Shown here piece after piece: positions 12,012 through 54,204 of a DNA stretch of 64,000 nucleotides. The notes below the pieces were generated by a model. It had not been told where the DNA came from and searched no databases. It saw only the letters and a program-made list of their open reading frames with translations. The position numbers were made by a program, and so were the translations under genes. Every line of letters starts with the position of its first letter. Positions within the stretch are counted from its first letter, which is position 1. The DNA is from Collimonas fungivorans Ter331. Its GTDB lineage: Bacteria; Pseudomonadota; Gammaproteobacteria; Burkholderiales; Burkholderiaceae_D. The DNA lies in the NCBI RefSeq assembly GCF_000221045.1, contig NC_015856.1, positions 62,001-126,000 of the forward strand, read 5' to 3'.

Positions 12012-12045
12012 GCTCGGGTCGGCAATATCGCCGAAGACCCCGAGC
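12012..12045 (-). ncRNA. Structured leader hairpin, candidate attenuator
   Basis: On the minus strand a GCTCGGG/CCCGAGC stem continues, after a four-base bulge, into TCGGC/GCCGA closed by a six-base loop. The left arm plus bulge (CGGGGTCTT) can instead pair with AAGAACCCCG, the first arm of the terminator at 11961-11994, with one bulged base. The two folds exclude each other, which is how attenuators and riboswitches work. No known riboswitch class is recognised. Confidence 0.4.
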
Positions 12046-12059
12046 AGTCATGCGCGGGG

Positions 12060-12098
12060 CTATTTATTTTTTGAATTGTTGATAGCCGTCCGTGGCAT
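12060..12098 (-). CDS. Possible 12-residue leader peptide
   Basis: ATG to TAG frame encoding MPRTAINNSKNK, with AGGAAAGGA 6-14 bases upstream. It ends just before the alternative hairpins at 12012-12045. Leader peptides in this position sense translation. The peptide has no obvious run of one amino acid, so the sensed signal would not be a simple tRNA shortage. It could be a chance frame. Confidence 0.25.
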   Translation of the reverse strand: MPRTAINNSKNK

Positions 12099-12249
12099 AG
12101 CCGTTCCTTTCCTGTAAAAAATGCGTTGGTCAAAATCCTGAGTTGCGATTCTGCGCTCGATGAAAACGCAGTGTCAAACGTTTCGTCGCTGCACAGCCGT
12201 GTTTTGTTGTTTTTTGCGCGAATCTTCGCGCCGAAGACGATGGCGCGGC

Positions 12250-12822: not shown

Positions 12823-13056
12823 TTTCTTCACCTTTGCTGCTGATTATAACCAGCATCTTCAGGTTACGGAAACCCCTTCGCGCCGCCAAGCCGAACCAGG
12901 AAATCCTGGCGACTTGCATGCATCATCGGTCACGCTTCTGTCATTTACTTGAGCGTCCGCAAACCCGGTATTACGCGCTGCGCGATGCGAATCGTTGCAT
13001 CGAGCAGGCACATAACAGACAATACCAGAGCTAATCACAACAAGCGAGCTAACACT

Positions 13057-15909
13057 ATGATTATGTGGGGAATTTTGTGCGGAGCCGTGCTGGGTTGGTT
13101 ATGGCCGAGCTCGGGATACGGTGACTTCAGCATCTTTTTGGGCGGCGGACTCGGTTTGCTGGCTGGATTGGGATTGCAGCATGCGATCCGTACCGAGATT
13201 CGCGCGGCCAATGAAAAATTGCGGCTGGAAATGTTGAAGCAGCGAACCGAGCCAAGCAGCCAGGCAACCGTTCCCGCTGCAAAGCCGGTCAGCAAGCCGG
13301 CGCCGACAAGCGATCCCGGCGCTGTTTCGGTTGCCGCAGCGCCGGCCGCAATCGCCGTCCAGCCCGCTGTTTCGAACATTCCCCCCAACCCGCAGCCGGC
13401 AACGCCGCCTGCACCTGCCCGCATCCTTCCACCGGCTGCACCGAACGCCGTGGAGCTGGCTTTCGCCGCGGCCAGGAACTGGCTCCTTGGCGGCAATACG
13501 ATTGTGCGTATCGGCCTGGTGATCCTGTTCATCGGCCTGTCTTTCCTGTCCAGTTATGCGGCGGCTGCCGGCCTGTTTCCGGTGGAGTTGCGGCTGGCGG
13601 CGGTTGCTGTCGCCGGGATCGTGCTGCTGGCTGTCGGTTTCGCCAAGCGCCAGGCCAAGCCGGCTTTTGCGCTGGCCTTGCAGGGCGGCGGCGTGGCGGT
13701 GATCTACCTCACCGTGTTTGCCGCTTTCCGCCGCTTTGACTTGATTTCGCCGCTGCCTGCTTTCGGTCTGATGATCGTGGTGTGCGCCCTTAGCTGTGCG
13801 CTGGCGCTGCTGCAGAACTCGCGGGCGCTGGCGGTGGCGGCTTTTGCGGGCGGTTTTGCGGTGCCGCTGCTGCTCTCTACCGGAGGCGGCAGCAGTGTCG
13901 CCCTGTTCAGTTATTACACGGTGCTGAACCTGGCGATCCTGTTCATCGCCTATAAGCGTTCCTGGCGCGTGCTGAACATGGTGGGTTTTGTCGCCACCTT
14001 TGGCGTGGCTACGCTGTGGGGCGTGCTCAAGTACCAGCCGGCGCAATACATGAGTTCGCAGCTGTTCCTGATTGTATTCGTGCTGATTTATGTGGCGGCG
14101 GCGATCCTGTATGCGCGCAATACGCCGACCCGGCTTGGCAATACTGTCGACAGCACGCTGATGTTCGGCACGGCGTTGGTCGGTTTTGGCTTGCAGGCCG
14201 GCCTGGTCGACCAGTTCAAGTTCGGCAGCGCTTTTTCGGCATTGGGATTTGCCGCGCTGTATCTGGTGCTGGCGGCGCTATTGCTGCGCCGCGGGCGAGA
14301 TAGTTATCGCCTGATGATTGAATCGATGATCGCCATCGGCCTCGGTTTTGTGACGCTGGCCGTGCCGCTTGCCCTCGACATGCGCTGGACCTCGGCGGTA
14401 TGGGCGCTCGAAGGAGCCGGCGCGTTCTGGGTCGGCATGCGGCAGGCGCGCTGGATGCCGCGCGGGTTCGGGCTGCTGCTGCAAGTGGTGGCTGCCGGCG
14501 CTTTCCTGGCGGGGATCGATGACAATGTGTCGGCCTGGCCGCTGGCCAATCCGATGTTCATGGGCGCCATGTTTATCGCCTTGCCGGCATTTGCCATCGC
14601 CTGGTGGCTGCGTGGCGTGCTGCCGCATAGCGATTCGCGCTGGGCCAGGGAATTTGCCAAGGCCGAAGCGGTGCTGTCTCAGCCGGTGTACCTGTTCGGG
14701 TTCCTGTTCTGGTGCCTGGCGTGGATCCTGGAAATCTGCCGCGAACTGCCCGCCAGCGAAACCGGCATGGCAAGCGTGCCCGTATTCGGCGCCGGCACCC
14801 AGCAGTTGCTGGTAGTGCTGGCGCTGGTGGCGAGCGCATGGCTGTCGCTGCTGCTGGCGCGCCGTAGCAATTGGACGGTGGCCACCTGGCCCAGCCGGCT
14901 GACGCTGTTGCCGCTGGCGCTGGGGTTTATCGCGCAAGAGCTGTCGGGGGAGCGCGTCCTGTACACGCCGGCCTGGGCCATCTGGCTGCTGGCCCTTGGC
15001 TTGCATTACTGGATGCTCTACAAGAACGACACGCAAACCCAGAGCCATATCGCTGCCCTCAAACTGAATCGTGCCGTTCACGTCGGCAGCGTGTGGCTGC
15101 TTACGCTGTTGCTGGCCGACTGCCTGTGGTTCGGCATCAAGCGCGGCGATTTGTTGCACAGTTCGTGGGCCAGCGTGGTGCTGCTGGTCAGCGCGATCGC
15201 GGTGCTGCTGGGTTTGTCAGTGTGGGCCGGCCGGGCCAACCGTGTTTCGCTGCTGCCGGCATTCAAGTGGCCGCTTAATGCGCATGCTGTCGCTTACTAC
15301 TGGTATGCGGCGCTGCCGCTGACGGTGCTGGTGTTTTTCGGCGCGCTTCTGATAGCGCTGCTGTCGTCGGGACATACGGCGCCGCTGCCCTATCTTCCCC
15401 TGCTCAATCCTACCGACCTGGCGCTGGCCCTGGCGCTCGGCGCGCTGGTATTCTGGCGCCGCGCAATCGTCGCCGCCCAGCCCTTGCCTGCCGGCGCTGC
15501 CTGGGTGCCACGCAAACAGACGCTGCTGGCGCTGGCCGTGCTGACGTTTGTCTTGCTCAATACCGTCTGGCTGCGTACCGTACATCACTTCTTCGGCGTG
15601 CGATGGGATAGTGCGGCGCTGTTCGACAGTTTTGTGGTGCAGACCGGCTACGCCATCTTGTGGACGCTGCTGGCGCTGGCCCTGATGCTGCTGGCGCACC
15701 GCCGCGTGCAGCGTGGATTGTGGCTGACCGGCGCCGCCTTGCTAGGCCTGGTGGTGGTCAAGCTGCTGCTGGTCGATTTGTCGAACGCGGGCGGCGCGGA
15801 ACGCATCGTCACCTTTATCGCGGTGGGCGCGCTGATGCTGGTGGTCGGTTATTTTGCACCGTTGCCGCCGAAGACTGCGGCGGACGCCGCAACTGTGAAG
15901 GAAGCGTAG
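13057..15909 (+). CDS. DUF2339 multi-pass membrane protein
   Basis: About 950 aa. A short N-terminal membrane segment and a glycine-rich stretch are followed by a charged helix, a proline/alanine-rich linker (about 70-150) and then more than twenty hydrophobic segments to the end, the architecture of DUF2339 proteins. The ATG at 13057 follows a frame start at 12949 that would add an unhydrophobic tail. It is followed two bases later by a DUF3999 gene; the two families are often paired and are thought to act together in the envelope, with no established biochemical role. Confidence 0.82.
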   Translation: MIMWGILCGAVLGWLWPSSGYGDFSIFLGGGLGLLAGLGLQHAIRTEIRAANEKLRLEMLKQRTEPSSQATVPAAKPVSKPAPTSDPGAVSVAAAPAAIAVQPAVSNIPPNPQPATPPAPARILPPAAPNAVELAFAAARNWLLGGNTIVRIGLVILFIGLSFLSSYAAAAGLFPVELRLAAVAVAGIVLLAVGFAKRQAKPAFALALQGGGVAVIYLTVFAAFRRFDLISPLPAFGLMIVVCALSCALALLQNSRALAVAAFAGGFAVPLLLSTGGGSSVALFSYYTVLNLAILFIAYKRSWRVLNMVGFVATFGVATLWGVLKYQPAQYMSSQLFLIVFVLIYVAAAILYARNTPTRLGNTVDSTLMFGTALVGFGLQAGLVDQFKFGSAFSALGFAALYLVLAALLLRRGRDSYRLMIESMIAIGLGFVTLAVPLALDMRWTSAVWALEGAGAFWVGMRQARWMPRGFGLLLQVVAAGAFLAGIDDNVSAWPLANPMFMGAMFIALPAFAIAWWLRGVLPHSDSRWAREFAKAEAVLSQPVYLFGFLFWCLAWILEICRELPASETGMASVPVFGAGTQQLLVVLALVASAWLSLLLARRSNWTVATWPSRLTLLPLALGFIAQELSGERVLYTPAWAIWLLALGLHYWMLYKNDTQTQSHIAALKLNRAVHVGSVWLLTLLLADCLWFGIKRGDLLHSSWASVVLLVSAIAVLLGLSVWAGRANRVSLLPAFKWPLNAHAVAYYWYAALPLTVLVFFGALLIALLSSGHTAPLPYLPLLNPTDLALALALGALVFWRRAIVAAQPLPAGAAWVPRKQTLLALAVLTFVLLNTVWLRTVHHFFGVRWDSAALFDSFVVQTGYAILWTLLALALMLLAHRRVQRGLWLTGAALLGLVVVKLLLVDLSNAGGAERIVTFIAVGALMLVVGYFAPLPPKTAADAATVKEA

Positions 15910-15911
15910 AG

Positions 15912-17303
15912 ATGAGATATTTTCCGATGCGTGCTGTTATCTGCGCAGCCGCCATGGCGGTAACCGGCGCTGCCTGGCCGGCGTCCGACCCGAACAGCGC
16001 GCAGTCGTATGCACTGCACCTGCCGCTTGCCTTTGCCGCGGATGCGCCGCTGCAGCGCCTGATCCTGCCCGCGCAAGTGCTGGTGAACCTGCAAACCGGC
16101 GGCTTGGGCGATGTGCGGATCTTCAACGCCAAGGGCCAGCCCCTGGCCATGGCGTTGTCCGACAGCGCTAGCCTGCGGCAAACCGAAAAACGCAAGATCG
16201 AGCTGAGATCGTCGCCCATCATGGGCAGCGCCGATCTCAGCGACCTATCCGCTTCTTCGCTACGGATCGAAGAACAGCAGGGCAAGCGCATCGTGCAGAT
16301 CGAGAGCAATCCGGCAGGCGCCGGCGCGCCGGCTAAAAAAGTGCTGGGGGCGCTGCTCGACACGCGCGCCGTCGACGATCCGGTGGTCGGCCTGGCGGTG
16401 GACGTCGATTTGCCCGATGCGCAGCCGATCACCTTTGATGTGCAGGCCAGCAAAGACTTGAAATACTGGCGTTCGCTGGCGCAAACCGTCTTCTATCGCG
16501 CCGAAGCCGGGAGCAGCGGCCTGGGCGCCGATCATATCGAGTTGCCCGCCGCCGATCTCAAGGATCAATATCTGCGCATCACCTGGACCGACGCCGCGGG
16601 GCGGACCGCGCCGGTGGTCATGCGCAGCGCCACATTGACCACTGCCCGTGGCGTCAGCAGCAGCGCGCGGGTCACGGCTGCACTGGCGCAGCCGGTGCTG
16701 GACAACCCCTATGCGCTGCGGTTTTCGCTGCCCTTCGCGACACCGGTGGCGGCGCTGAAAATCAAGCCGGCGGGCGACAATGTACTGCTGCCGGTGCGGG
16801 TGCTAGGCCGCCAGGATGCCGGCCAGCCATGGACCATGATGACCACGAGCGTGATCTACAAATTGCAGACAGGGGGCAAGCTGCAAACCAGCGCAGCGAT
16901 CGAGTTGCCGCCGACCGCCTATCGCGAAATCAAGATCGAAGCCGACAAGAAAACCCAGGGTTTCTCCGCGCCGCCGGAAATCAGCCTGGAATTCGAACCG
17001 GTGCAGATCGTGGCGCTGGTCAACGGCCCCGCGCCGTTTACCCTGGCGGCAGGTCTTGCCAACGCTACGAGTCCTTATCTGCCGATGCAAAGCCTGATGC
17101 CGGATTACCGTCCGGCGCAAGAGAACAGCTTGCCGCTGGCGCAGGCAGACGGCGCAACAGCGCTGGTGCCGGCATCCGCCGGCCGCGACGGCATGCCGAC
17201 GCGCAATATCATCCTGTGGGCAGTATTGCTGCTGGCGGCTGTGGCGCTGGGTGTCATGGCCTGGGTGCTGCTCAAGCAAAATGCCAGTCGGCCCCAACAG
17301 TGA
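15912..17303 (+). CDS. DUF3999 domain protein, membrane-anchored
   Basis: 463 aa with an N-terminal signal sequence ('MRAVICAAAMAVTGAAWPA'), a large beta-rich extracytoplasmic part and one C-terminal membrane helix ('IILWAVLLLAAVALGVMAWVLL' region, about 432-453). The length and layout match DUF3999. It starts two bases after the DUF2339 stop and is surely in the same operon. Function unknown; a partner of the DUF2339 protein is the best guess. Confidence 0.8.
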   Translation: MRYFPMRAVICAAAMAVTGAAWPASDPNSAQSYALHLPLAFAADAPLQRLILPAQVLVNLQTGGLGDVRIFNAKGQPLAMALSDSASLRQTEKRKIELRSSPIMGSADLSDLSASSLRIEEQQGKRIVQIESNPAGAGAPAKKVLGALLDTRAVDDPVVGLAVDVDLPDAQPITFDVQASKDLKYWRSLAQTVFYRAEAGSSGLGADHIELPAADLKDQYLRITWTDAAGRTAPVVMRSATLTTARGVSSSARVTAALAQPVLDNPYALRFSLPFATPVAALKIKPAGDNVLLPVRVLGRQDAGQPWTMMTTSVIYKLQTGGKLQTSAAIELPPTAYREIKIEADKKTQGFSAPPEISLEFEPVQIVALVNGPAPFTLAAGLANATSPYLPMQSLMPDYRPAQENSLPLAQADGATALVPASAGRDGMPTRNIILWAVLLLAAVALGVMAWVLLKQNASRPQQ

Positions 17304-29296: not shown

Positions 29297-29430
29297 TTCA
29301 GATCGGCAATACTTCTGCCGCATATTCGTTCCATCTGTTGTCACGGGCAAAGTCGACGTCCTCACCCAGGACCGTGGCTTAAATAGCTGCTCTATGCAAA
29401 GCCATTCCTTTTGCAAAACGGAGAATGCCA

Positions 29431-31674
29431 ATGTATCCAAACCCTTCTGCAATGCTGGCCCGGGTAGGCCGCTTCAACCAGGACCGGCGCCTGGTCCGGA
29501 TCAAGACCCCGTTGGATGCCGACCTGCTGCTGGTGCATCGGATGTACGGCAGCGAAGCATTGTCCAAGCCGTTCCAGCTGACGCTGGAATTGCTGTCGCC
29601 GTACGACCAGCTTGAACTCAAGCAGCTGGTCGGACAGCCGGTGCTGCTGACCATGCAGACCGCCGGCGACGAGCGCCATTTCCATGGTTTCGTGCAGGAA
29701 TTCAGCCGCACCGGCAGCGACGGCGGCCTGGCCACTTACCAGGCGCAGCTGGCGCCATGGTTTTCCTTCCTCGACTACGCCAGCAACTGCCGCGTGTTCC
29801 AGGACCAGTCGGTGCTCGATATCGCGCAGGAAGTGTTCAGCAAGTACGGCCAGCTGGCCGACTATCGCTTCGACCTGGTTGCCGGCCGCTATCCAAAACT
29901 GCCGTACTGCGTGCAGTACAACGAATCCGATTTCACTTTCGTTTCGCGCCTGCTGGAAGATGCCGGGATCTACTACAGCTTCGAGCACAGCGAGAGCGGC
30001 CACAAGCTGGTGCTGGCCGACGACTCCACCCAATGCAAGCCGCTGGAAGGCGACGCCACCGTGCGTTTCCAGCCCAACCAGGAATTGCAGGCCAGCGACG
30101 TGCTGGACGACTGGCGGCCGCGGCGCCGGGTCGGGCCCTCGGTGCACAGCATCAAGAGTTTCGATTTCAAGCAGCCGCGCAATCCCCTCGCGGTCGAACT
30201 GAAGAATGATGCGCCGCGCGGCACCCTGCCGCAGTTCGAACACTATGCTTACGATGGTGCGGCCAGTTACGGCAACAGCTCGGTCGGCGAACAGCTGACC
30301 GCGGTGCGGGCCGAGGAAGCCGGCTGGCAGACCAAGGTGTTTGAGGGAGCCGGCACTACCCGGGTGCTGGCGATCGGCCGTTATTTCGACCTCAGCGGCC
30401 ATTTCGAGCACGAGGACGACGACCAGACCGAACATCGCTTCACGGCGCTGCAGGTCAAGCACGATGCCCGCAACAATTTCTCCAGCGATTTCAGCGAAGC
30501 CCAGGATTGCATGTACCGGGTCGAGGTCAGCGCCTTGCGCCGCAAGATTCCCTACCGGCCCTTGCGCGAGACCGCCAAGCCGCGTATGCCGGGGCCGCAG
30601 ACGGCGACCGTGGTGGGACCGAAAGGCGAGGAGATCTGGCACGACAAATACGGCCGCGTGAAATTGCAGTTCCACTGGGACCGTCTGGGCCAGTTCAATG
30701 ACCAGAGCTCTTGCTGGGTGCGGGTCGCCAGCCCTTGGGCCGGCAGCGGCATGGGCGGGGTTTCGGCGCCGCGCGTCGGGCAGGAAGTGGTGGTTGATTT
30801 CCTCGACGGCAATCCGGACCGGCCTATCATCACCGGCCGCGTCTACAACGCCGACAACATGCCGCCGTTCGGCCAGGAAGTCAGCGGCATGCGCTCCAAG
30901 ACGGTGCGCGGCGGCGGCTTCAACGAAGTCACCATGCACGACACCGGCGGCAGCGAGCTGCTCAACATGCATGCCCAGCGCGACATGGCGGTGACGGTGC
31001 TGAACGACCATAACAGCACCGTCAAGAACAACAAGGCGACCAAGGTGGCCGTCAACCACAGCCTGAATGTCGGCGCCAACCAGGATATTTCGGTGGGTGG
31101 CAACCGCGGCGCAACGGTCACCGGCAACGATACCCGCACCGTCACCGGCACCTCCACCGCCACCGTTACCGGCGCGGTGACGCAAACCTACCAGGCAGGC
31201 CAGAAACGCACCATCACTGCCGCCGGTTATAACGAAAACATCACCGGCGACTACGGCAGCACCCTGGTCGGCAACTATAGCGGCAGCACCAGCGGCAACT
31301 GGAAGCGCGCCATCACCGGCACCGCCACCCGCACCATCACCGGTGCGGTCAGCGACACCATGCATGCCGGCCGCGAAGTGACGGTGACCGGCACCGACAA
31401 GCGTACCGTGACCGGCGCGGTGGAAGACGGCAATACCGGCGCGCGCCTGTTGTCCGTGACCGGCAACATGCAGCACGAAGTGTCCGGCACTCATAGCGTG
31501 TATTCCGGCTCCGACCAGACAATTACCTCGGGCAGCAAGGTTGATCTTATTGTCGGCGGCGCCGGCATCAGTATCGTAGGCAGCGAAATCGTCATCACCG
31601 CAGGCGGCTCGACCATCAAGATCAACGGCAGCGGCGTGTCGATCAACGGCAGCAAGATCAACCTGAACAGCTGA
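29431..31674 (+). CDS. vgrG: VgrG spike protein 1
   Basis: About 747 aa. Gp27-like and gp5 OB-fold parts fill residues 1-470 ('YNESDFTFVSRLLEDAGIYY', 'FHWDRLGQ', 'GMGGVSAPRVGQEVVV'), followed by a triple-stranded beta needle. The C-terminal 230 residues are full of short 'TVTG' and 'TITG' repeats, a regular beta-helix that should extend the spike. There is no DUF2345 domain and no separate toxin domain, so the cargo is the RHS protein two genes downstream. ATG 29431 is preferred over 29425 because ACGGAGA is six bases upstream of it. Confidence 0.95.
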   Translation: MYPNPSAMLARVGRFNQDRRLVRIKTPLDADLLLVHRMYGSEALSKPFQLTLELLSPYDQLELKQLVGQPVLLTMQTAGDERHFHGFVQEFSRTGSDGGLATYQAQLAPWFSFLDYASNCRVFQDQSVLDIAQEVFSKYGQLADYRFDLVAGRYPKLPYCVQYNESDFTFVSRLLEDAGIYYSFEHSESGHKLVLADDSTQCKPLEGDATVRFQPNQELQASDVLDDWRPRRRVGPSVHSIKSFDFKQPRNPLAVELKNDAPRGTLPQFEHYAYDGAASYGNSSVGEQLTAVRAEEAGWQTKVFEGAGTTRVLAIGRYFDLSGHFEHEDDDQTEHRFTALQVKHDARNNFSSDFSEAQDCMYRVEVSALRRKIPYRPLRETAKPRMPGPQTATVVGPKGEEIWHDKYGRVKLQFHWDRLGQFNDQSSCWVRVASPWAGSGMGGVSAPRVGQEVVVDFLDGNPDRPIITGRVYNADNMPPFGQEVSGMRSKTVRGGGFNEVTMHDTGGSELLNMHAQRDMAVTVLNDHNSTVKNNKATKVAVNHSLNVGANQDISVGGNRGATVTGNDTRTVTGTSTATVTGAVTQTYQAGQKRTITAAGYNENITGDYGSTLVGNYSGSTSGNWKRAITGTATRTITGAVSDTMHAGREVTVTGTDKRTVTGAVEDGNTGARLLSVTGNMQHEVSGTHSVYSGSDQTITSGSKVDLIVGGAGISIVGSEIVITAGGSTIKINGSGVSINGSKINLNS

Positions 31675-31697
31675 GACCTTATTGAAAGGACGCGAAC

Positions 31698-33344
31698 ATG
31701 GCGAAGAATCCTGTCGAAAAGCGCGTCGAGACCCTGCGCGACCTGTGGCTGGAGCACACCGAGGAGCCTCAGGTGCGGCTGCTGGTATGGCGCATTCCCG
31801 ATAATGCCGACCGCATGCTGCAAGCTTTTTTCGAGATGCAGCAGCATCCCGGCGACTGGACCACGCCGGACCTGTTCTTGCGCTTCGATGCGCCGTTCGA
31901 TACCGGCTTCGGCTACAGCCGAGCATTGCGCCAGGCCCTGGCCGACAGCTATGTCGACAGCAAGGACAGCCTGCGCGAGCAAGGGGTAACGGCAGACTGG
32001 CCGTTTTCCCGGCTGCCGCTTCACGATTCGGCTTCCGGCGTCATGGCCATGCTGTCTTCGTTTGCGCAGCATCACAAGGCGCAGCTGCCGCACTTGCGTT
32101 ATGTGAATGCGGTGCTGGCGCCGAACGGCGTGACCAGCCAGGATGGCTGGGAAGCGTGGCTGGATGCGGCGCTGCGCAGCCCGGGCCTGGCGCCGGACGG
32201 CGCAGGGGTGCGCTTGACATTGGTCGATACCTTGTCCGACAAGCGCTGGCAGACGCTGGCGCAGCGCCATGGCGCCAGCGTGCGCATAGTCGAAGCGCCG
32301 ATCGACATGTTCGATATCGCTCGCGAAACGGTGGCGCAGTCGGGGGGCTCCGGTCCGACGGTAGCCTATCGCCAGCTGCTCACCGATGTCATCACCCTGG
32401 TCGAAAAAGGCAGCGCTGCGCAAACCGCGGCGCGCGCCGAAAAAGCCATGCAGATCGCGCAGCGCGAGCGGTGGCCGGACCAGCAGGTAGTGCTGCAGAT
32501 GGCGGTCGCGGGCGCTTACGTAAAAGAAAAGAACTACGTCGACGCCATCAAGCGCTATCGCGACGCCCGTGAATGCGCCACCACGGCGGAACAGGACAAG
32601 CATCCGATGGCCGCCGACCTGATCATGCAAACCTGGTTTGGCGAAGCCGGCGTATGGCTGGTGGCGAAGCAGCCGGAAAAAGCGGCGCAAGCCTATCGCA
32701 GCGCCGCCGAGCAGGCACAGCGCGTGCCCAATCCCATGTTCGAAATCGAAGGTTTCCGCATGGCCGCCTGCAGTTATGCGCAAGCGCGGCAGGAAAAACT
32801 CGCGCGCGAACACGGCGCCCTGGCTCTGCGTGCTGCAAAAGCAATCGCTCCGGCCGAGCGCCCGCTCACCACCATGTCGCTGGCTTTGCAGGATTTGCTG
32901 CGGCTGCAGGATCCGGGCCGCACCGAAAAACTGGAGCGCAGCGCGGCCGATTACCAGGCTGCCATCGCCGCCGCCCACCTGCATGCCGAGCAACAGGCCG
33001 GCAAGCTGGGCGAGAAGCCGGCGCCGGCCGACCTGGAAAAGATAGAAACCGCCATGCACGCGCGTTTCGAAAGCAGCTTCCAGCGCCAGCGCCAGGAACG
33101 CGAACACCTGATCGCCGGCGGCGACGAATTCTTCCGTAAAGTGGTGGCGCTGGCGCGCGAACTGCTCAATCCGCTCTGGAACGGCCTGCCGGAGGTCAAG
33201 CATCCGCTCGACAAGGATGTCCCGGAATGGAGCGAGCCGCCGCAGTTCACCAATTTGCCCGACCCGGCCGGCGTGATCGACGCTGCCTCGGCCAATTCAA
33301 ACGCAGCCGCCAAAGCGCCGATAGGCGCCGCCGCGACCGCCTGA
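31698..33344 (+). CDS. TPR-like candidate adaptor between VgrG and RHS
   Basis: 548 aa, no signal or membrane helix. Residues about 1-200 form a distinct alpha/beta-like part ('VRLLVWRIPDNADRM', 'DLFLRFDAPFDTGFGY', 'ASVRIVEAPIDMFD'). Residues about 225-440 look like helical TPR-type repeats. The tail is alanine/proline-rich. It is none of the known cargo adaptors (DUF4123/Tap, DUF1795/EagR, DUF2169), yet sits exactly where such an adaptor is expected, 23 bases after vgrG1 and 13 before the RHS gene. From memory, related proteins recur beside VgrG/RHS genes without a tested function. A chaperone that loads the RHS toxin on the spike is the best inference. Confidence 0.65.
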   Translation: MAKNPVEKRVETLRDLWLEHTEEPQVRLLVWRIPDNADRMLQAFFEMQQHPGDWTTPDLFLRFDAPFDTGFGYSRALRQALADSYVDSKDSLREQGVTADWPFSRLPLHDSASGVMAMLSSFAQHHKAQLPHLRYVNAVLAPNGVTSQDGWEAWLDAALRSPGLAPDGAGVRLTLVDTLSDKRWQTLAQRHGASVRIVEAPIDMFDIARETVAQSGGSGPTVAYRQLLTDVITLVEKGSAAQTAARAEKAMQIAQRERWPDQQVVLQMAVAGAYVKEKNYVDAIKRYRDARECATTAEQDKHPMAADLIMQTWFGEAGVWLVAKQPEKAAQAYRSAAEQAQRVPNPMFEIEGFRMAACSYAQARQEKLAREHGALALRAAKAIAPAERPLTTMSLALQDLLRLQDPGRTEKLERSAADYQAAIAAAHLHAEQQAGKLGEKPAPADLEKIETAMHARFESSFQRQRQEREHLIAGGDEFFRKVVALARELLNPLWNGLPEVKHPLDKDVPEWSEPPQFTNLPDPAGVIDAASANSNAAAKAPIGAAATA

Positions 33345-33357: not shown

Positions 33358-36300
33358 ATGACCAACGCTGCCAAGCATTTCGACCCGCAGATCGGCATCG
33401 ATATCCACATGTACGTACTGGTGCCCGGCACGCCGCCGGTGCCGCTGCCGACCGCGCATATCTCGATGGTGCTCGATCCTTTCGATTATCTGCCGTTTAT
33501 CGGCGCGACAGTACAGGTAGCCGGCGTCAAGCGCGCCACGGCGGGAACCGGCGGCCTGTCGGTGCATATCCCGCTGGCGATATGGGTGCCGCCCCTGCGC
33601 GCCCCCGGCGGTCCGCAGTTCGACGACGAGCTGTTCATGGGCAGCAAGACCGTGCTGGCCGACGACTCGCCGTTCTCGCGCCTGGGCATGCCGGTGCTCG
33701 ATTGCAGCGTGGTCGGCATGGTGCCGCCGTTCCGCCTGAAGAAACCGTCCAAACCGCATCTGTCGATGACCTTGCCGACTTCGGTCAACCTGGCGATACC
33801 CGACAGCGTGTTTGTCGGCGGGCCGCCGACGATTTCCTTGATGGCGATTGCGTCCAGGCTGGGACTGGCGGCTCTTGGCAAAGGATTCAAGGCGTTGCGC
33901 GGGACAAAGGGGTATAAGCGTGCGGCAGCAATGTTCAAGGAGGCACGGCAGAAGTTGTTCAAGAATATGGATTCCGGTTTCTTTAAATGCAAGATATTGC
34001 ATGCCGAGCCGGTCGATATCCGCGATGGCAGCGTAGCGGTTTCGCAAGAAGATTTCGCCATCTCAGGACGCTTGCCATTGATCTGGACTCGCGATTATTC
34101 ATCGGGCAATAGCTACGACGGCATGTGCGGTTACGGCTGGCAGACGCCCGCGGATTTCCGATTGGAAATCGAAGCGGATGGCATGGTACTGTTTTTCGAA
34201 GCCAACGGGGCTGCAGTATTTCCGCAACTGCCAGAAGCCGCTGGCGCTGAGCACGCTGTGACCGAATTTGTCGATGGCGCTCGATTAGCCTGGATTCAAA
34301 ATGACGAAATTGCCGAGCTGCAGGTTCTGACCAAGGGCGATTTGCGTTATATCTTCCGCATGCCGACGCCCAATATCGCGCCACAGCATCAAGTCCTGCA
34401 TCTGCAGATCGAGAGAATTGAAGACTTGTGCGGCAATCACTGGCGATTCGAGCGCGTTGAAGGACATCTGACCCGAATCATAGAGAATGGCATCGGCATC
34501 ATGCCAGGCCGTTTTATCGAAGTGCATGAATCCGCCGGCAAAATTCATCAGCTAAGCCTACATGACCCGGCTACCGGCCTGAACTACCCGCTGAGTACTT
34601 ACAAATACCAGAATCAGGACCTGATCGCTGAATTCGACGCACTCGATGTTCCCCGCACCTTCGACTACGACCGCCATCACATGGTGCGCCACGCCGACCG
34701 GCTGGGATTGTCCTTCTATTATGCTTATGACAGTGAATGGCGTGTAGTGCACGCCTGGGGCGACCATGGATTGCATGACTACCGGTTTGGGTACAACGCA
34801 GTATTGCGGGAAACCGAAGTCACCGATTCACTGGGCCATACTTCGCTGATCAAGTTCGATGAGGACAACCTGCCTCTTTGCGAAATCGATCCTTTAGGTG
34901 GGGTTACGAGCTTTGAATATGACGAGGTAGGGCGCACCACCGCGGTATCGGATCCGGTCGGATCGCGCACGGAATTTGAATATGACGAACGCGGAAACCT
35001 GTTGAAATTGCTGCAGGCAGACGGTAGCGTGATCAGCATGGAGTTCGACGGCGCCAATCGTATGACTTTGGTGGTCGACTCGCTTGGGCATCCTTGGCGG
35101 CGTGTCTGGGACGAAAGGGGTCGGATGCTGGAGCAAAGCACGCCTATGGGAGCGCGCTCGCGCTTTACCTACGATGCTCACGGCCAATTGCAAACCCACA
35201 TCAACCCGCGCGGAGCTGTCACTAGGCTGGTTTTCGATCGCTACGGCAATATATCGCAGCTGACGGACCCGCTTGGTCATCGCAGCCATTTCGAATATGA
35301 CGCGCTGGGCGACCTGACACGCCATACCGATGCTAGCGGAGCTGTCACTGAATATCGCTATGACGCCAAAGGACGTCTGCTGCAGACTCGCCAGGCCGAC
35401 GGAGCCAGCACCCGCTGCGACTATGATGCGGAAGATCGGCTGACCGCCTATGCGGATCAGAACGGCGCCCTGACCAGGGTCGAGTATGTCGGCACCGGCC
35501 AGGTCGCCAAGCGCGCACTGGCTGACGGGCACATTGTGGAATATCTATACAATACCGAGGAACAACTGATCGGCCTGGTAAACCAGCGCAAGGAGCACTA
35601 CCAGCTCAAGCGCGATGCCTTGGGCCGCGTCATTGAAGAATGTGATTATTGGCAGCAATCGCGCCGTTATTGTTACGATCCTGGTGGCAGCCTGGCAAGC
35701 GCCACCGATCCTCTGGGCCGCGTCGTCACCTATGTTACTGATCGACTGGGCCGCATCACAAAGAAAATCTTGCCCGATTCCGATAGTCCCGGACAGCATG
35801 TGCAGGAAATTTTCAGTTACGACAAGAACGGCAATCTGATCGAAATCCGTAATTCGCATCGGCATGTGCTGCGCAAATTCGACGCCGACGGTCGTCTTGG
35901 CGGAGAAATGCAAGACGGGTTTCAGGTTGAATACGGCTACGATGAGGCGGGTAACCGGGTGTCGCGACAAACCGGCGCAGGCAATAAGGTTGTTGCCCGC
36001 TTCGATTTACGCGACCAGGCAACCGCTATTGTCATTAACGACGCGACGCCGATCTTGATCGAGCGCGATGCGCTTGGACGCTCCATCAAGGAGCAATTGA
36101 GCGGCAGTCTTCAGCGTCAGCTGCGTTACGACACGGAAGGTCACCTCACAGCCCAAACCGTGCTGTGGGACCAGGCGCCTCTATTTGCCACTAGCTACGA
36201 TTACGACAGCGCGGGAAATCAAACGCGGCGCAACGATAGCGAGCATGGCAGTGATCTGTATCATTACGACCCGTTGGGCAATATTCTGCGCCATATCGAC

Positions 36301-37752
36301 CCTGCCGGTCGCATTACGGATTTTCTCAGCGATCCGACTGGCGATCGCTTGCGCACCCGGATCCAGCTAGCCGAAGTGATGCAGGCAGCGGGCGCTGAAG
36401 GCCTGGCCGATGCTCTATGGAGCCGCGAAGGCAGCTATGAGGGCAACCACTACATATTCGATCGTGCGGGCAACCTGGTCCGGCGCAACAGCGGCCAATC
36501 GTCGCCGGCAGAGCAATCCAACACCGAACCGGCCACGCAGCTCAGATGGGACGCCAATCAACGCCTGATCGAAAGCAGCAAAGGCGGCCAGGTGACTCGC
36601 TACGGCTACGACCCGCTTGGCCGGCGGGTATTCAAACGTAGCCTGGCTCACACCACCTGGTTTTTCTGGGACGGCGACGTCTTACTGGGAGAAGTGCATC
36701 AGGCCAGCAATGCCAAGAACCATGCCGACATTTGGTCAGCCGGCAATGTGGCTGATTTCATGGCGGCGCGTAAGCGGCTAGCGGCGCTGAAAACAATGCA
36801 TGCCGGGGTGCGGGAATATGTCTATTATCCGGCTACATTTGCGCCGCTGGCGCTGATCGATGGACAAACTGAGGCAACAGCAAGAATGGTTCGGCCTGTC
36901 AATCCGATGGGATTGGGGATGGGAATACTGATTGGCGGTGTTGCCAATGCATCTCTATCCGGTGCGGCGCCGAGCGGCCTCCCGGAGATCGGCAGGCCCG
37001 AGACGGTGGCGACAGCTGACGAAACTCTTGGCACCGTCTTTTATTATCACAACGATCCCAATGGCTGTCCGACAAGGTTAACCGATAAGTACGGGAAAAT
37101 TGTGTGGTCGGCCAGTTACGCAGCCTGGGGCGAGGTACGGCAGCTGCACGCAGCGGGGATCGACAACCCGATCAGGTTCCAGGGCCAATACCATGATGTA
37201 GAAACAGGATTGCATTACAACCGGTATCGATATTACGACCCGTATATCGGACAATTTGTCGGAAAGGATCCGATTGGACTGGATGGCGGCAACAACCTGT
37301 ACCAGTATGCACCTAACCCGAATCGCTGGATTGACCCGTTGGGGTGGGATTGGAACTATCATCTTACAAATTCCGATGGCGATGTCTATTACCATGGACG
37401 CGCCAGCGATAAGCAGTCAATGGCTGACGTCGCGCGCAGACATGGGAAAAACGTGGGCACTGACGGTGCGCGGTTTGGTTCAGGCGACACCATGACGCAA
37501 ATTACCAAGCCAGGCACGCCAAAATTGACCGCTCAAGGTGTGGAAGGCGTAGCGGTTCAGGAAACCGGGGTCATCGGTCGGAAAAAGACGAATGGCGGCA
37601 AAGTACGTGGCAACGCAATCGAAGGCGTTAACCCTAAATCAAAAAGAGCGACCATAAAAATGGAAGCCGGGGAAGATTTCTTGAAAGGCAAGAGCCCGAG
37701 CGAAATGACTGGAACCACATTAAAAGGAAAGGATTACAAAATAAAATGCTGA
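33358..37752 (+). CDS. PAAR-like RHS-repeat T6SS effector with C-terminal toxin
   Basis: 1464 aa. Residues about 1-130 form a PAAR-like tip ('GSKTVLADDSPFSRLGMPVLDC'), with a weakly hydrophobic helix near 155-180. A DUF6531-type region follows, then many YD repeats building the RHS shell, and the conserved 'RYYDPYIGQFVGKDPIGL' plus 'WIDPLGW' that ends the shell near residue 1330 and marks self-cleavage. The last 130 residues are the toxin: 'DVYYHGRAS', an arginine in 'GARFG', a glutamate in 'VEGVAVQETG' and 'RGNAIEGVNP', an order like GIY-YIG nucleases, though this is weak. The base composition turns AT-rich over the toxin, as is usual for swapped RHS tips. Confidence 0.9.
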   Translation: MTNAAKHFDPQIGIDIHMYVLVPGTPPVPLPTAHISMVLDPFDYLPFIGATVQVAGVKRATAGTGGLSVHIPLAIWVPPLRAPGGPQFDDELFMGSKTVLADDSPFSRLGMPVLDCSVVGMVPPFRLKKPSKPHLSMTLPTSVNLAIPDSVFVGGPPTISLMAIASRLGLAALGKGFKALRGTKGYKRAAAMFKEARQKLFKNMDSGFFKCKILHAEPVDIRDGSVAVSQEDFAISGRLPLIWTRDYSSGNSYDGMCGYGWQTPADFRLEIEADGMVLFFEANGAAVFPQLPEAAGAEHAVTEFVDGARLAWIQNDEIAELQVLTKGDLRYIFRMPTPNIAPQHQVLHLQIERIEDLCGNHWRFERVEGHLTRIIENGIGIMPGRFIEVHESAGKIHQLSLHDPATGLNYPLSTYKYQNQDLIAEFDALDVPRTFDYDRHHMVRHADRLGLSFYYAYDSEWRVVHAWGDHGLHDYRFGYNAVLRETEVTDSLGHTSLIKFDEDNLPLCEIDPLGGVTSFEYDEVGRTTAVSDPVGSRTEFEYDERGNLLKLLQADGSVISMEFDGANRMTLVVDSLGHPWRRVWDERGRMLEQSTPMGARSRFTYDAHGQLQTHINPRGAVTRLVFDRYGNISQLTDPLGHRSHFEYDALGDLTRHTDASGAVTEYRYDAKGRLLQTRQADGASTRCDYDAEDRLTAYADQNGALTRVEYVGTGQVAKRALADGHIVEYLYNTEEQLIGLVNQRKEHYQLKRDALGRVIEECDYWQQSRRYCYDPGGSLASATDPLGRVVTYVTDRLGRITKKILPDSDSPGQHVQEIFSYDKNGNLIEIRNSHRHVLRKFDADGRLGGEMQDGFQVEYGYDEAGNRVSRQTGAGNKVVARFDLRDQATAIVINDATPILIERDALGRSIKEQLSGSLQRQLRYDTEGHLTAQTVLWDQAPLFATSYDYDSAGNQTRRNDSEHGSDLYHYDPLGNILRHIDPAGRITDFLSDPTGDRLRTRIQLAEVMQAAGAEGLADALWSREGSYEGNHYIFDRAGNLVRRNSGQSSPAEQSNTEPATQLRWDANQRLIESSKGGQVTRYGYDPLGRRVFKRSLAHTTWFFWDGDVLLGEVHQASNAKNHADIWSAGNVADFMAARKRLAALKTMHAGVREYVYYPATFAPLALIDGQTEATARMVRPVNPMGLGMGILIGGVANASLSGAAPSGLPEIGRPETVATADETLGTVFYYHNDPNGCPTRLTDKYGKIVWSASYAAWGEVRQLHAAGIDNPIRFQGQYHDVETGLHYNRYRYYDPYIGQFVGKDPIGLDGGNNLYQYAPNPNRWIDPLGWDWNYHLTNSDGDVYYHGRASDKQSMADVARRHGKNVGTDGARFGSGDTMTQITKPGTPKLTAQGVEGVAVQETGVIGRKKTNGGKVRGNAIEGVNPKSKRATIKMEAGEDFLKGKSPSEMTGTTLKGKDYKIKC

Positions 37753-38624
37753 ATAAAAATCTTATTGACGCACGTGCATTAAAAATTCTCCTGAAGTACG
37801 ATGTGCTGGCCGCTGGCTATGAAGCACGAGGATATCCGCTCAATGCCCGTCAACAAGAATATGTAGAGAAAAACGGTACTTCGCCTGAAGATATGTCTTA
37901 CATGAAACAGCACGGCCTGGCATTTGATTCGCTCAAGATCGGCCATGACGAAGCGGTGCGGAAAAGTTTTGAACACTATGCGCTATGCAAGAAGAAGCAC
38001 GTTACTAATTTGTTTTTAGCCAGTTTCAGCAGTGGGCGCCAGGATTATAGAAGCGGACTGTCCGCTTATGCATTCATGCAAACGATGCCCGATCATGTGT
38101 GCGAGCTGAGTTCTGCGGATGTCTGCAAGATATGCTCTGCCGTAGAGGTAAAGGATCGCCTGGATTTGACCGGCTTGAATCAACAAAGATTTAAATGCGG
38201 TTCGATGATCGGATATAAAACGCCCTACGAGATCCATTTTTTTCTGGAACAGCACCACCAGCTCCAGGACGTCCCACCAGCTGCTGCGGATTTTGCTATT
38301 TTTAATGCAATCATCGACATACTGAAACATGCGGATGATGGCCTGAAACCGAAAGACGCGCATAAAGAACTGAAAAAAATTCCTGGCTTCAAACCTACTA
38401 CCGACGAATGTCAATATGTGCTCGAGATTTTGGGATTTTGCAGCATCCTAGAGACAGAACAACATAGAGGATATTTGACGCATTACACCAATCCTGGTCT
38501 TGCTCCGAGTAAATCGCATAGCTCAGATTGGGCGTATCCAGTTGATTTCTGGACTGGGAAAAACGGCATAAACCGTGACGCATTAAAATTTTGGTTTGGC
38601 GCCTACAAAGAGATCAAGATTTAA
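37746..38624 (+). CDS. Candidate immunity protein to the RHS toxin
   Basis: 292 aa, no signal or membrane helix, so cytoplasmic. The start overlaps the RHS stop by seven bases, the usual coupling of an RHS tip to its immunity gene, and both are AT-rich relative to their neighbours. There is a cysteine cluster ('HVCELSSADVCKIC') that could bind zinc. I do not recognise the family. A cytoplasmic location agrees with a toxin acting on nucleic acid. Confidence 0.7.
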   Translation: MLNKNLIDARALKILLKYDVLAAGYEARGYPLNARQQEYVEKNGTSPEDMSYMKQHGLAFDSLKIGHDEAVRKSFEHYALCKKKHVTNLFLASFSSGRQDYRSGLSAYAFMQTMPDHVCELSSADVCKICSAVEVKDRLDLTGLNQQRFKCGSMIGYKTPYEIHFFLEQHHQLQDVPPAAADFAIFNAIIDILKHADDGLKPKDAHKELKKIPGFKPTTDECQYVLEILGFCSILETEQHRGYLTHYTNPGLAPSKSHSSDWAYPVDFWTGKNGINRDALKFWFGAYKEIKI

Positions 38625-51548: not shown

Positions 51549-51564
51549 ACGTATGGGACACGGC

Positions 51565-54204
51565 ATGAGCAACATACTTCAGAGCCTGCAAAGCCTCATT
51601 AGCGGGCGCCAGACCAACCGTATCCTGCGCCTGTCCTTTCCCCACGATGATGGCCCATCTGCGCAGCTGCTGGTCAACAAGCTCGATGCGGTGGAAAGCC
51701 TGTCGCGTGATTTTGAATTTACCGTAGAGCTGCTGTCCGATGATGCCAGCCTGGCGCTCAAGGATTTGCAAGGCAAGCTGTTTAACGTAGAACTGGTGCG
51801 CGCCGACGGCAGCCTGCGCTACTTCAGCGGCTACTGCTTTGAATTCCGCCTGGTGAAGACCGACGGCAGCATCAGTTTTTATCAGGCCAAACTCGGCCCC
51901 TGGTTGCACTACCTGCGCCTGCGCCAGGACAACTACATCTTCCACGGCAAGACCCTGCGCGAGCAGACCGAGAGCATCTTCAGCGATTACGGCACCCATC
52001 CCGACTGGGATGTGCGGGTGCGCGGCGAAGATGTGGCAATGACCGACGCCTGCCAGTTCAACGAGAGCGATTTCAATTACCTGCACCGGCGCTGGGAAGC
52101 GGCCGGCTGGTCGTACTGGTATGAACATACTGACAAGGGTCACAAGCTGATCCTGACCGACGACACCACCCAGGCAGCAGCGATCGACAACGGCCCCGAG
52201 ATCCGCTTCCAGCGCCATGGCGGTGCGATTGAGGAAGACGGCATCGGCGACTGGTCGCCGGTGCGCCAGATCGTGCCCGGCAGCGTCAGCCTGGCAGGGT
52301 TTAATTTTAAAAGTCCGGTGCCCAGTAACGTCGGTGTGCCGACCCTGAACAAGCAGGGCGATGTCCTCAATATCGAATCCTACGAATACACCGGCACCTA
52401 TGGCTATAAAGGTAGCCAGGATGGCGACAAGCAGGCGCAGCTGCGCATGGAAGAGATCGAGGCAGCCGGTAAACACTTTGAAGCCAAAGGCAATAACCGC
52501 TCGGTACTGCCGGGACGGTATTTCCGTTTAAGCAATCATTTTGCCTTCAATCCCTTCGGCAGCCATGAAGAAGCCGGTAAAAGCGAATTCCTGATCCTCA
52601 CCGTCCACCACAAGGCGACCAACAATTATCTGCAGCAGGCCAGCGACAAGGCCGATTACAGCAACGCATTAACCTGCATCCGTAAAACCATCCCCTGGCG
52701 TCCAGGCCGCGGTTTTAACAGCACTGCCACCAGGATCCAGGCGCCACAGACCGCGACCGTGGTCGGACCTTCCGGCCAGGACAGCATCTATACCGATGAA
52801 TACGGCCGTATCCGTGTCCAGTTCCACTGGGACCGGATCGGCAACAACGATGAAAAGAGCTCGGCCTGGATCCGTGTTGCCTCCGGCTGGGCCGGCAGCG
52901 AACTGGGAGCGGCGGCGATTCCCCGGGTCGGCAGCGAAGTGATCGTGCAATGGCTCGATGGCAACCCTGACCGGCCCCTGATTACCGGCAGCGTCTATAA
53001 CCAGCGCAACATGCCGCCCTGGAAGCTGGCGACCCAGCAATCGTTGATGGGCCTCAGAAGCCGTGAGCTGACCCCGAATGGCGGCAACCAGGCAGGGGGT
53101 CGCAGCAACCACCTGATCCTGGACGACACCAACGCCAAGATCCAGGCCCAATTAAAGAGCGATCACCAGCACAGCCAGCTCAGCCTGGGCAACATCACCC
53201 GCATTGAAGACAATGCCGGCCGCAAGGATGCACGCGGCGAAGGCTGGGAACTGAGAACCGATGGTCATGGCGTGGCCCGTTCAGCGAAAGGCATGCTGAT
53301 CACCACTGAAGGGCGCAGCAATGCGGCTTCGCACATGAAGGATATGGGCGAGACGGTGCAAAGGCTTACCTCTGCGCGCGACCAGCACGAGACGCTGGCG
53401 GAGATGGCGCAGCAGGCGGGGGCGCAGGAGAAGCAGGGTCAGCAGGCCGATGTTGCGCAGATTCTCAAGACGCAGAATGAGGCAATCAAGGGTGGCACAG
53501 CAAAAGAGGGCAGTTTCCCGGAACTGGCCCAACCGCATCTGGTGCTGGCCAGTCCCGCCGGCATAGAAACCACCACCGCGCAATCGACGCACATTGCCAG
53601 CGATGAGCACACCGCCATCACTACCGGCAAGAGTCTGTCCATTGCCAGTGGCGATAGCCTGTTTGCCAGTATTACGAATACTTTCCGCTTGTTTGTACAA
53701 AAAACGGGAATGAAAATGGTCGCAGCTGCCGGCGATGTGGATATGCAGACTCTCTCAGACAGCATCAACCTGCTGGCCAAGTTGAACATCACGCAAACTG
53801 CAAACACCATTACCATTACCGCCAAAGAAGAGGTAGTGATCAATGGCGGAGGCAGTTACGGGAAATTCAATGCCGGCGGCATCGAGCACGGTACTAACGG
53901 CAATTATGTCGCCCATGCAGCTACGCACAGCTTGCCAGGAGCGAAAAATCTGGCCATCAAAATGCCTGAGTTCCCTCACGTAGCTATGCCTGGCGTGTTC
54001 AATGAATATTTTCATATCGCTGAAGAAGGCACGGGAAAAAAATTGGCCAACATACCGTACACTCTCGCACGTCATTCAACAGGTGAGACGATAGAAGGAG
54101 TAACCGCCACAAATGGCAAGACACAATTAGCTGGCACTGAAAAAAAATCCGACGATCTGCATTTCTTCTATACAGGTGATAAAAAGGAAAATCATGGCTG
54201 GTGA
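51565..54204 (+). CDS. vgrG: VgrG spike protein 2 with C-terminal extension
   Basis: About 879 aa. VgrG core to about residue 490 ('CQFNESDFNYLHRRWEAAGWSYW' part: FNESDFNYLHRRW; 'FHWDRIG'; 'AAIPRVGSEVIVQW'), then 'SNHLILDDTNAKIQAQL' opening the needle, a DUF2345 domain (about 580-780) and a C-terminal transthyretin-like domain 'IPYTLARHSTGETIEGVTATNGKT' of which IPYTLARHSTGETIEG is shown. Such extensions bind cargo effectors, here probably the protein encoded next. ATG 51565 is preferred by GGGA five bases upstream; 51553 is an alternative. Only about 2% of the window earlier, vgrG1 has a different, TVTG-rich tail. Confidence 0.95.
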   Translation: MSNILQSLQSLISGRQTNRILRLSFPHDDGPSAQLLVNKLDAVESLSRDFEFTVELLSDDASLALKDLQGKLFNVELVRADGSLRYFSGYCFEFRLVKTDGSISFYQAKLGPWLHYLRLRQDNYIFHGKTLREQTESIFSDYGTHPDWDVRVRGEDVAMTDACQFNESDFNYLHRRWEAAGWSYWYEHTDKGHKLILTDDTTQAAAIDNGPEIRFQRHGGAIEEDGIGDWSPVRQIVPGSVSLAGFNFKSPVPSNVGVPTLNKQGDVLNIESYEYTGTYGYKGSQDGDKQAQLRMEEIEAAGKHFEAKGNNRSVLPGRYFRLSNHFAFNPFGSHEEAGKSEFLILTVHHKATNNYLQQASDKADYSNALTCIRKTIPWRPGRGFNSTATRIQAPQTATVVGPSGQDSIYTDEYGRIRVQFHWDRIGNNDEKSSAWIRVASGWAGSELGAAAIPRVGSEVIVQWLDGNPDRPLITGSVYNQRNMPPWKLATQQSLMGLRSRELTPNGGNQAGGRSNHLILDDTNAKIQAQLKSDHQHSQLSLGNITRIEDNAGRKDARGEGWELRTDGHGVARSAKGMLITTEGRSNAASHMKDMGETVQRLTSARDQHETLAEMAQQAGAQEKQGQQADVAQILKTQNEAIKGGTAKEGSFPELAQPHLVLASPAGIETTTAQSTHIASDEHTAITTGKSLSIASGDSLFASITNTFRLFVQKTGMKMVAAAGDVDMQTLSDSINLLAKLNITQTANTITITAKEEVVINGGGSYGKFNAGGIEHGTNGNYVAHAATHSLPGAKNLAIKMPEFPHVAMPGVFNEYFHIAEEGTGKKLANIPYTLARHSTGETIEGVTATNGKTQLAGTEKKSDDLHFFYTGDKKENHGW

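What the first reader, a model, noticed from the sequence alone, without database searches (positions are those of the whole stretch)
31698..33344. Possible new class of RHS/VgrG adaptor
The 548-aa protein is placed exactly between vgrG1 and a PAAR-like RHS effector. It is none of the known adaptors (DUF4123, DUF1795/EagR, DUF2169), and none of those is present in the window. It joins an alpha/beta-like N-terminal half to TPR-like repeats. A loading factor for the RHS cage is the simplest reading.
Basis: partly seen in the sequence, partly recalled or inferred. Interest (0 to 1): 0.7.

Follow-up and report, generated by a model that had tools for sequence, protein, structure and literature searches.

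The report
Unnamed adaptor-like partner of Rhs toxins
A soil bacterium's molecular spear gun carries an uncharacterised protein, encoded between the spear tip and its caged toxin and kept there in distant bacteria too, that probably helps mount interchangeable toxins on the tip and is unlike the known mounting proteins.

Summary
The 548-aa gene (31698-33344, +) lies 23 bp after a vgrG and 13 bp before an Rhs gene in a T6SS cluster of a Collimonas-like genome. Relatives occur in Beta- and Gammaproteobacteria and in Bacteroidota. In 25 loci read (23 found by this protein's own sequence), vgrG is directly upstream in 23; an Rhs with one shared PAAR-like N-domain follows in 23 (in three after one small gene); both in 22. 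Among same-genus loci the protein is 81-96% identical while the Rhs tips are 16-32% identical in 27 of 28 pairs, so it is hardly an immunity protein. No DUF4123, DUF1795 or DUF2169 model matches 14 members, and none of these lies in the window. AlphaFold gives an N-domain whose nearest solved folds are AAA+/STAND ATPases (Z 12, modest confidence), without Walker A in 22 of 22, then TPRs. Best reading: a dead-ATPase/TPR adaptor that docks the PAAR-like head of Rhs on its VgrG. Binding and secretion are untested. Ten full-text searches showed no description; Coyne 2016 may hold the Bacteroidales members under an unresolved 'Tag' name.

The parts
31698..33344 (+). The 548-aa protein of the finding ('X'): adaptor-like protein, dead AAA+/STAND-like domain plus TPR
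31698..32339 (+). X residues 1-214: alpha/beta domain, nearest solved folds AAA+/STAND ATPases, no Walker A
32340..32909 (+). X residues 215-404: TPR superhelix
32910..33341 (+). X residues 405-548: long helices and a low-confidence tail; largely absent in the Burkholderia-type and Bacteroidota members
29425..31674 (+). VgrG (TssI) paired with X
33358..37752 (+). Rhs effector (RHS repeats, DUF6531, Rhs core)
33358..33990 (+). Rhs residues 1-211: PAAR-like N-domain, shared by the Rhs behind X in 23 of 25 loci (in the other two no Rhs was seen)
37345..37749 (+). Rhs C-terminal variable tip (residues 1330-1464), putative toxin domain, no Pfam family at its cut-off
37746..38624 (+). 292-aa protein, putative cognate immunity protein; of the loci searched only near-identical L004 has it

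Best explanation
X is a T6SS spike adaptor (chaperone) dedicated to one class of Rhs effector. Shown: it is kept together with a VgrG and with an Rhs that bears a particular PAAR-like N-domain, while the toxin tip is swapped freely. Shown by prediction only: a P-loop-less AAA+/STAND-like domain followed by a TPR superhelix. Inferred: X binds the constant parts, that is the PAAR-like head of the Rhs cage and probably the VgrG tip, keeps the head soluble and correctly folded, and docks the loaded cage on the spike before firing. The TPR groove would hold one partner, and the ATPase-like domain would act as a nucleotide-independent scaffold for the other.
For: vgrG upstream and Rhs downstream in 22 of 25 X loci read, or 20 of the 23 that were found by X sequence; the two Bernardetia loci were reached from the Rhs side (neighbours). 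The N-domain homology across phyla is real: a profile of 19 proteobacterial rows finds the three Bacteroidota members at E 7.8e-19, 2e-9 and 1e-7, against 0.024 for the best of 3000 shuffles. Seen from the Rhs N-domain, X lies next to, or one small gene away from, 10 of 11 plasmid records; eight of these ten were already known from the X side. Among same-genus loci X is 81-96% identical where the tips are 16-32% identical, in 27 of 28 pairs (8 loci, two of them near-duplicates). Pairwise identities of X track those of VgrG (rho 0.91) and of the first 330 residues of Rhs (rho 0.87) over 171 pairs. Caballeronia keeps X beside Rhs without vgrG. Architecture. No Walker A in 22 of 22.
Against: No interaction, secretion or co-structure evidence. 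Adjacency and co-inheritance also fit a structural, regulatory or co-secreted partner. The correlation is not corrected for descent. G052 carries X away from any vgrG or Rhs, and Eleftheria carries the same Rhs N-domain with no X or VgrG beside it, so the link is not absolute. In Tenacibaculum and the Bacteroidales an Imm17-type gene lies between X and Rhs. Three of 22 rows have a lone Glu at the Walker B place. The N-domain model is of modest confidence (pLDDT 69.4, pTM 0.70) and no Foldseek match reaches E 0.001 (best 0.02).
Confidence: 0.75

Rival explanations
1. X is a co-secreted or structural part of the loaded spike, such as a filler of the baseplate cavity or a spike collar, rather than a cytosolic chaperone that is left behind.
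For: The constant association with both VgrG and Rhs does not separate a retained adaptor from a secreted part. A passage of PMC13373197 discusses accessory proteins filling the baseplate cavity.
Against: T6SS chaperones are described as not secreted with the effector (PMC11925235 passage), but this was not tested for X.
Confidence: 0.13
2. X is a sensor or regulator: a STAND-like protein that detects loaded Rhs or VgrG through its TPR and controls assembly or expression.
For: The domain order resembles STAND proteins with a TPR sensor: 6mfv is matched by the full model and by the N-domain; 8bob, a maltose-system regulator structure that I take to be MalT, by the N-domain.
Against: No Walker A in 22 of 22 rows; no DNA-binding domain is evident in the predicted secondary structure; in L011 and L013 the cassette lies with no other tss gene annotated within 10 kb (the plasmid gene tables are incomplete).
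Confidence: 0.07
3. X is an immunity protein or a second effector of the polymorphic toxin module.
For: It is close to a toxin gene, and TPR repeats occur in some immunity proteins (PMC3482391 passage).
Against: X stays 81-96% identical while the tips are 16-32% identical (27 of 28 pairs), it lies upstream of Rhs, and a separate downstream gene holds the usual immunity position.
Confidence: 0.05

Closest known systems
DUF4123 (Tap/TEC) T6SS adaptors
   Same: Encoded next to vgrG and its effector gene; presumed loading role
   Different: No sequence or profile similarity (hhalign probability 0.2%; 0 of 14 members). In this genome the one DUF4123 gene lies beside a different vgrG
EagR / DUF1795 chaperones of PAAR-Rhs effectors
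   Same: Serve Rhs effectors with an N-terminal PAAR region (recalled and search listings)
   Different: No profile match (0 of 14); 0 of 14 of these Rhs N-domains carry the prePAAR motif as I recall it
DUF2169 / TvpA chaperones of PIPY (DUF4150) spikes (PMC11883445, PMC13373197)
   Same: Stabilise a PAAR-like domain on its VgrG; linked to vgrG and a PAAR-like gene (abstracts)
   Different: No profile match (0 of 14); no PIPY motif in 14 Rhs N-domains; the DUF2169 fold is reported as novel, whereas X is predicted as AAA+/STAND-like plus TPR
STAND ATPases with a TPR sensor (PDB 6mfv)
   Same: Predicted order: P-loop-NTPase-like domain, then helical repeats
   Different: X lacks Walker A in 22 of 22 rows and the full Walker B pattern and is tied to T6SS Rhs modules
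Bacteroidales T6SS 'Tag' proteins (Coyne et al. 2016, PMC4714493)
   Same: An X homologue lies directly after the VgrG gene in a Bacteroidales T6SS locus, and the paper names TagA and TagB as conserved proteins of unknown function in such loci (passages)
   Different: The passages do not let me tell which Tag, if any, is the X homologue; no function is proposed in them

Membership tests
T6SS effector adaptor/chaperone (functional class) | gene beside vgrG and the cognate effector, conserved as a unit | tested here: met
   both in 22 of 25 loci, in three of them with one small gene before Rhs
T6SS effector adaptor/chaperone (functional class) | binds effector and/or VgrG | not testable with these tools
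   no complex prediction or binding assay at hand
T6SS effector adaptor/chaperone (functional class) | needed for effector stability or secretion, itself not secreted | not testable with these tools
   needs deletion strains and secretomes
DUF4123 adaptor | match to PF13503 | tested here: not met
   0 of 14 members at E 0.1; hhalign probability 0.2% against 15 ORFs taken at DUF4123 matches
DUF1795/EagR | match to PF08786 | tested here: not met
   0 of 14 members at E 0.1
DUF1795/EagR | partner effector carries the prePAAR motif | tested here: not met
   0 of 14 Rhs N-domains carry AARxxDxxxH, the motif as recalled
DUF1795/EagR | partner effector carries N-terminal transmembrane segments | tested here: inconclusive
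   highest 19-residue hydropathy 1.13-1.73; 6 of 14 reach 1.6, the window's Rhs 1.31; no membrane predictor was run
DUF2169/TvpA | match to PF09937, partner PIPY/DUF4150 domain | tested here: not met
   0 of 14 members; no Tox-PAAR-like/DUF4150 match at E 1 and no PIPY motif in 14 Rhs N-domains
AAA+/STAND ATPase | fold of the nucleotide-binding domain | tested here: inconclusive
   best match 2qen Z 12.0, rmsd 4.2, 203 aligned; by title the 50 listed rows are AAA+/STAND ATPases or complexes of them; model pLDDT 69.4, best Foldseek E 0.02
AAA+/STAND ATPase | Walker A (GxxxxGK[ST]) and Walker B (hhhhD[DE]) | tested here: not met
   0 of 22 with Walker A; no hhhhD[DE] at strand 3, though L013, L016 and L030 have a lone Glu there
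TPR repeat proteins | TPR profile or fold | tested here: met
   Pfam TPR_12 in 5 of 14 members, best E 5.8e-8; family profile against PDB consensus TPR E 2.4e-13; VIA Z up to 20.6. The window protein itself reaches no TPR cut-off
PAAR domain (Rhs N-domain) | match to PF05488 or PF13665 | tested here: inconclusive
   no direct Pfam hit in 14; linked through a 130-aa stand-alone protein after a VgrG-like ORF in G262 that matches both the Rhs N-domain profile (2.9e-11) and PAAR_motif (4.3e-10)
Rhs polymorphic toxin | RHS/YD repeats, Rhs core, variable tip | tested here: met

The most novel reading that the evidence does not exclude
X is a nucleotide-independent 'pseudo-AAA+ loader'. A catalytically dead ATPase module of the AAA+/STAND kind (its nearest solved folds include replication-origin and clamp-loader ATPases), fused to a TPR superhelix, assembles around the trimeric VgrG tip and seats the PAAR-headed Rhs cage on it. 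It would be a further structural solution to spike loading beside the Tap, Eag and DUF2169 folds, one shared by proteobacterial T6SS and the divergent Bacteroidota T6SS and passed between bacteria as a vgrG-X-rhs cassette.
Probability: 0.15. Interest if true: 0.8.

Novelty: new variant of a known kind. Interest (0 to 1): 0.6.

Why it matters
How Rhs cages without the known chaperones are mounted on the T6SS spike is open. A passage of PMC10470768 says that the Agrobacterium adaptors are absent from Bacteroidales T6SS, and X homologues sit right after the VgrG gene in Parabacteroides and Bernardetia T6SS loci and in Tenacibaculum. If X is the adaptor, it may be the missing loading factor for Rhs effectors of Bacteroidota, gut Bacteroidales included, a marker for finding unknown Rhs toxins, and a handle for attaching cargo to the spike.

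Tried and rejected
DUF4123 membership: rejected. Immunity protein or toxin: disfavoured by the tip comparison (forced pairwise alignments, no shuffled control was run). Active ATPase: rejected on the missing Walker motifs. Viral origin: a viral-contig scan with A1, which used one peptide pattern, gave no relative; phage records none; PHROGs hits only in single members, best 0.0014; PADLOC one marginal hit. The full-length fold searches are filled by generic TPR matches and say little about the N-domain, so that domain was predicted and searched alone. A PDB search with the Rhs N-domain profile gave nothing below E 0.2.

Rows dropped before counting: nine genomes with weak matches (19-24 bits, only the TPR or C-terminal part of the profile) were not counted as family members: G026, G386 and G625, G139, G962, G677, G802, G705, G796. 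H7 (second Tenacibaculum record) and H10 (Bacteroides finegoldii) were not fetched. L085-L092 are short versions of loci read as L093-L100. Three of the 25 loci are near-duplicates (L004, L033, L069); without them vgrG and Rhs are both present in 19 of 22. In one search the script alone missed the vgrG of L011, which the record's annotation shows, and gave a false overlap for L009 because the ORF was extended upstream; a short X fragment of L016 was left out. In one search one same-genus tip (L007) escaped the pattern; one search has it (16-23% against four others). Genome counts are lower bounds, because searches scored at most 3 candidates per genome and at most 5.

Literature: ten full-text searches showed no paper describing this family in what I saw (listings, two abstracts, passages). 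Most subscription papers and preprints, and supplementary tables, were not searched.

After the one-time check I corrected the wording on gene adjacency (one small gene before Rhs in three loci), on how the Bernardetia loci were found, on the lone Glu at the Walker B place and on what was seen of each paper; none of these required a change of odds.

Full report
The window lies at 62001-126000 of a single-contig genome of 5.19 Mb. Its nearest named relatives are Collimonas records. The region is a T6SS gene cluster: TssM, TagF and an OmpA-like protein upstream; a ClpV-like ATPase, TssG, TssF, TssJ, TssK, TssL and a second vgrG downstream. The 548-aa ORF (X) lies at 31698-33344, 23 bp after vgrG and 13 bp before the Rhs gene.

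Family and linkage. Two Bernardetia records were reached from the Rhs side and carry X as well. Of 14 other genomes of the window's genus, 8 carry it. I read 25 X loci. vgrG is directly upstream in 23 (22 by the script plus L011 by its annotation); an Rhs with the shared N-domain follows in 23; both in 22. Among the 23 loci found by X sequence both are present in 20. In Tenacibaculum, Parabacteroides and, by the same spacing, Phocaeicola one small Imm17-type gene lies between X and Rhs. The exceptions are L010 (the contig ends inside X), L016 (Caballeronia: X and Rhs with no vgrG, beside Csy2-Csy4 CRISPR genes; its Rhs frame holds a stop near the start) and L017 (G052: X alone; the genome has VgrGs on other contigs). 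Removing three near-duplicates leaves 19 of 22 with both.

From the Rhs side, the Rhs N-domain finds 11 plasmid records. X is next to it, or one small gene away, in 10; eight of these were already known from the X side. Of the three new ones two (Bernardetia) have X and one (Eleftheria) has the Rhs alone. In 274 genomes of the class the N-domain profile rings only in the window genome and, weakly, in G262, where it is a stand-alone 130-aa protein after a VgrG-like ORF and no X is seen in the 3 kb read. That protein matches Pfam PAAR_motif at 4.3e-10, which supports calling the Rhs N-domain PAAR-like, although no Pfam PAAR model hits it directly.

Constant part and variable part. Among same-genus loci X is 81-96% identical while the Rhs tips are 16-32% identical in 27 of 28 pairs; the exception is the window and near-identical L004, which share tip and downstream gene. 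X, VgrG and the first 330 residues of Rhs diverge together (Spearman 0.91 and 0.87 over 171 pairs of 19 loci; not corrected for descent). The two Lysobacter modules are closer to the window's than the Burkholderia-type ones (L012, L013, L015, L030) in X, VgrG and Rhs head (56-59, 58-59 and 63-66% against 27-29, 32-33 and 40-45%), although Burkholderia is, from general knowledge, the nearer relative of Collimonas. That is what a cassette moving as a unit would give. X is thus tied to the constant part of the weapon.

Is it a known adaptor? None of 14 family members matches DUF4123, DUF1795 (DcrB) or DUF2169; apart from TPR models only weak hits in one or two members appear. A profile comparison with 15 ORFs taken at DUF4123 matches of the genus gives 0.2% probability. 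The genome has no DUF2169 or DcrB match and one DUF4123 gene, beside another vgrG. The genome has seven VgrGs above the TIGR03361 cut-off but a single DUF6531 match, in the Rhs beside X. The Rhs N-domains carry neither the prePAAR motif (recalled) nor PIPY. DUF2875 and PRK06147 are further reported chaperone domains (PMC11925235 passage); the Pfam scan of 14 members and the NCBIfam scan of the window protein gave no such match, though I did not check that those libraries hold a model for PRK06147.

Structure. AlphaFold2 on 8 sequences gives mean pLDDT 75.4 for the full protein: alpha/beta residues 5-214, TPR helices 220-404, long helices to 489, a low-confidence tail. The N-domain alone has pLDDT 69.4 and pTM 0.70. 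Foldseek's best match is the Walker-type ATPase 2qen (E 0.02, probability 0.97); none reaches E 0.001; in the 50 listed rows every match with probability of at least 0.5 is, by its title, an AAA+ protein or a complex that contains one. The second look gives 2qen Z 12.0 (rmsd 4.2, 203 aligned), and the 50 listed rows are by title AAA+ or STAND ATPases or complexes of them: ORC, TnsC, Rubisco activase, BrxC, STAND-TPR 6mfv and others. 6mfv was also matched by the full model. With this model confidence it is a coherent lead, not proof. The place of the P-loop reads RIPDNADRML in the window and carries no Walker A in 22 of 22 rows; strand 3 carries no hhhhD[DE], though L013, L016 and L030 have a lone Glu there. 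The N-domain is a true family domain across phyla: a profile of 19 proteobacterial rows finds the three Bacteroidota members at 7.8e-19, 2e-9 and 1e-7, the best of 3000 shuffles 0.024.

Mechanism. Shown: position, co-inheritance, indifference to the toxin tip, absence of ATPase motifs. Inferred: X holds the PAAR-like head of the Rhs cage and probably the VgrG tip, and docks one on the other. Caballeronia's X-Rhs pair without vgrG hints that the Rhs head is the primary partner, though that locus may be a relic. Rivals (secreted part, sensor, immunity) are weighed in their own section.

Literature. I saw the abstract and passages of PMC13373197, the abstract and the start of the introduction of PMC11883445, and passages only of PMC4714493, PMC11854122, PMC10470768, PMC12718326, PMC11925235, PMC3482391, PMC8651086 and PMC8125069; other papers in search listings only. 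Coyne 2016 names TagA (GA1 and GA2) and TagB (GA1) as proteins of unknown function; one of them may be the X homologue, which I could not settle. A statement that the family is undescribed would rest only on the ten searches listed in Tried and rejected.

Verdict: a real, conserved T6SS accessory family, unnamed as far as I could see, with a fold combination that I did not find among the known adaptors; the adaptor function is likely and readily testable.

Noticed in passing
window 37345-37749 and 37746-38624: The variable tip of the window's Rhs protein (nuclease-like to my eye) and the 292-aa downstream gene match no Pfam family at its cut-off; of the same-genus loci compared only near-identical L004 has the tip. 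It may be a new toxin-immunity pair.
   Followed up: partly
window 54176-55408 and 55387-56307: Two overlapping genes after the second vgrG (51553-54204) with no Pfam family at its cut-off; candidate effector and immunity or accessory genes.
   Followed up: no
L016 (Caballeronia sp. M1242 plasmid) 4379-16173: X and Rhs sit beside Csy2-Csy4 CRISPR genes without a vgrG; a fragment of about 92 aa of a second X lies behind the Rhs, and the Rhs frame holds a stop near its start: a decaying or rearranged module.
   Followed up: partly
L014 18386-24059 and L069 16391-23506: Two Bacteroidota X-Rhs loci trail series of partial Rhs ends with AHH, SUKH or Imm neighbours by annotation, which look like spare toxin-immunity cassettes behind the constant Rhs.
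   Followed up: no
L017 (G052:C36) 46-4117: Orphan X homologue with no vgrG or Rhs nearby, between a clostripain-like gene, a small membrane-like protein, a GreA/B-like gene (by eye) and a GNAT acetyltransferase; G052 has VgrGs on other contigs, one near a contig end.
   Followed up: partly
L032 11998-23935 (Parabacteroides): One X is followed by two Rhs genes with nearly identical N-domains, which suggests that one X could serve two interchangeable Rhs effectors.
   Followed up: no
window 29392-31926 (-) and 31491-33203 (-): Long antisense ORFs (844 and 570 aa) opposite vgrG and X; probably artefacts of the coding sequence on the other strand.
   Followed up: no
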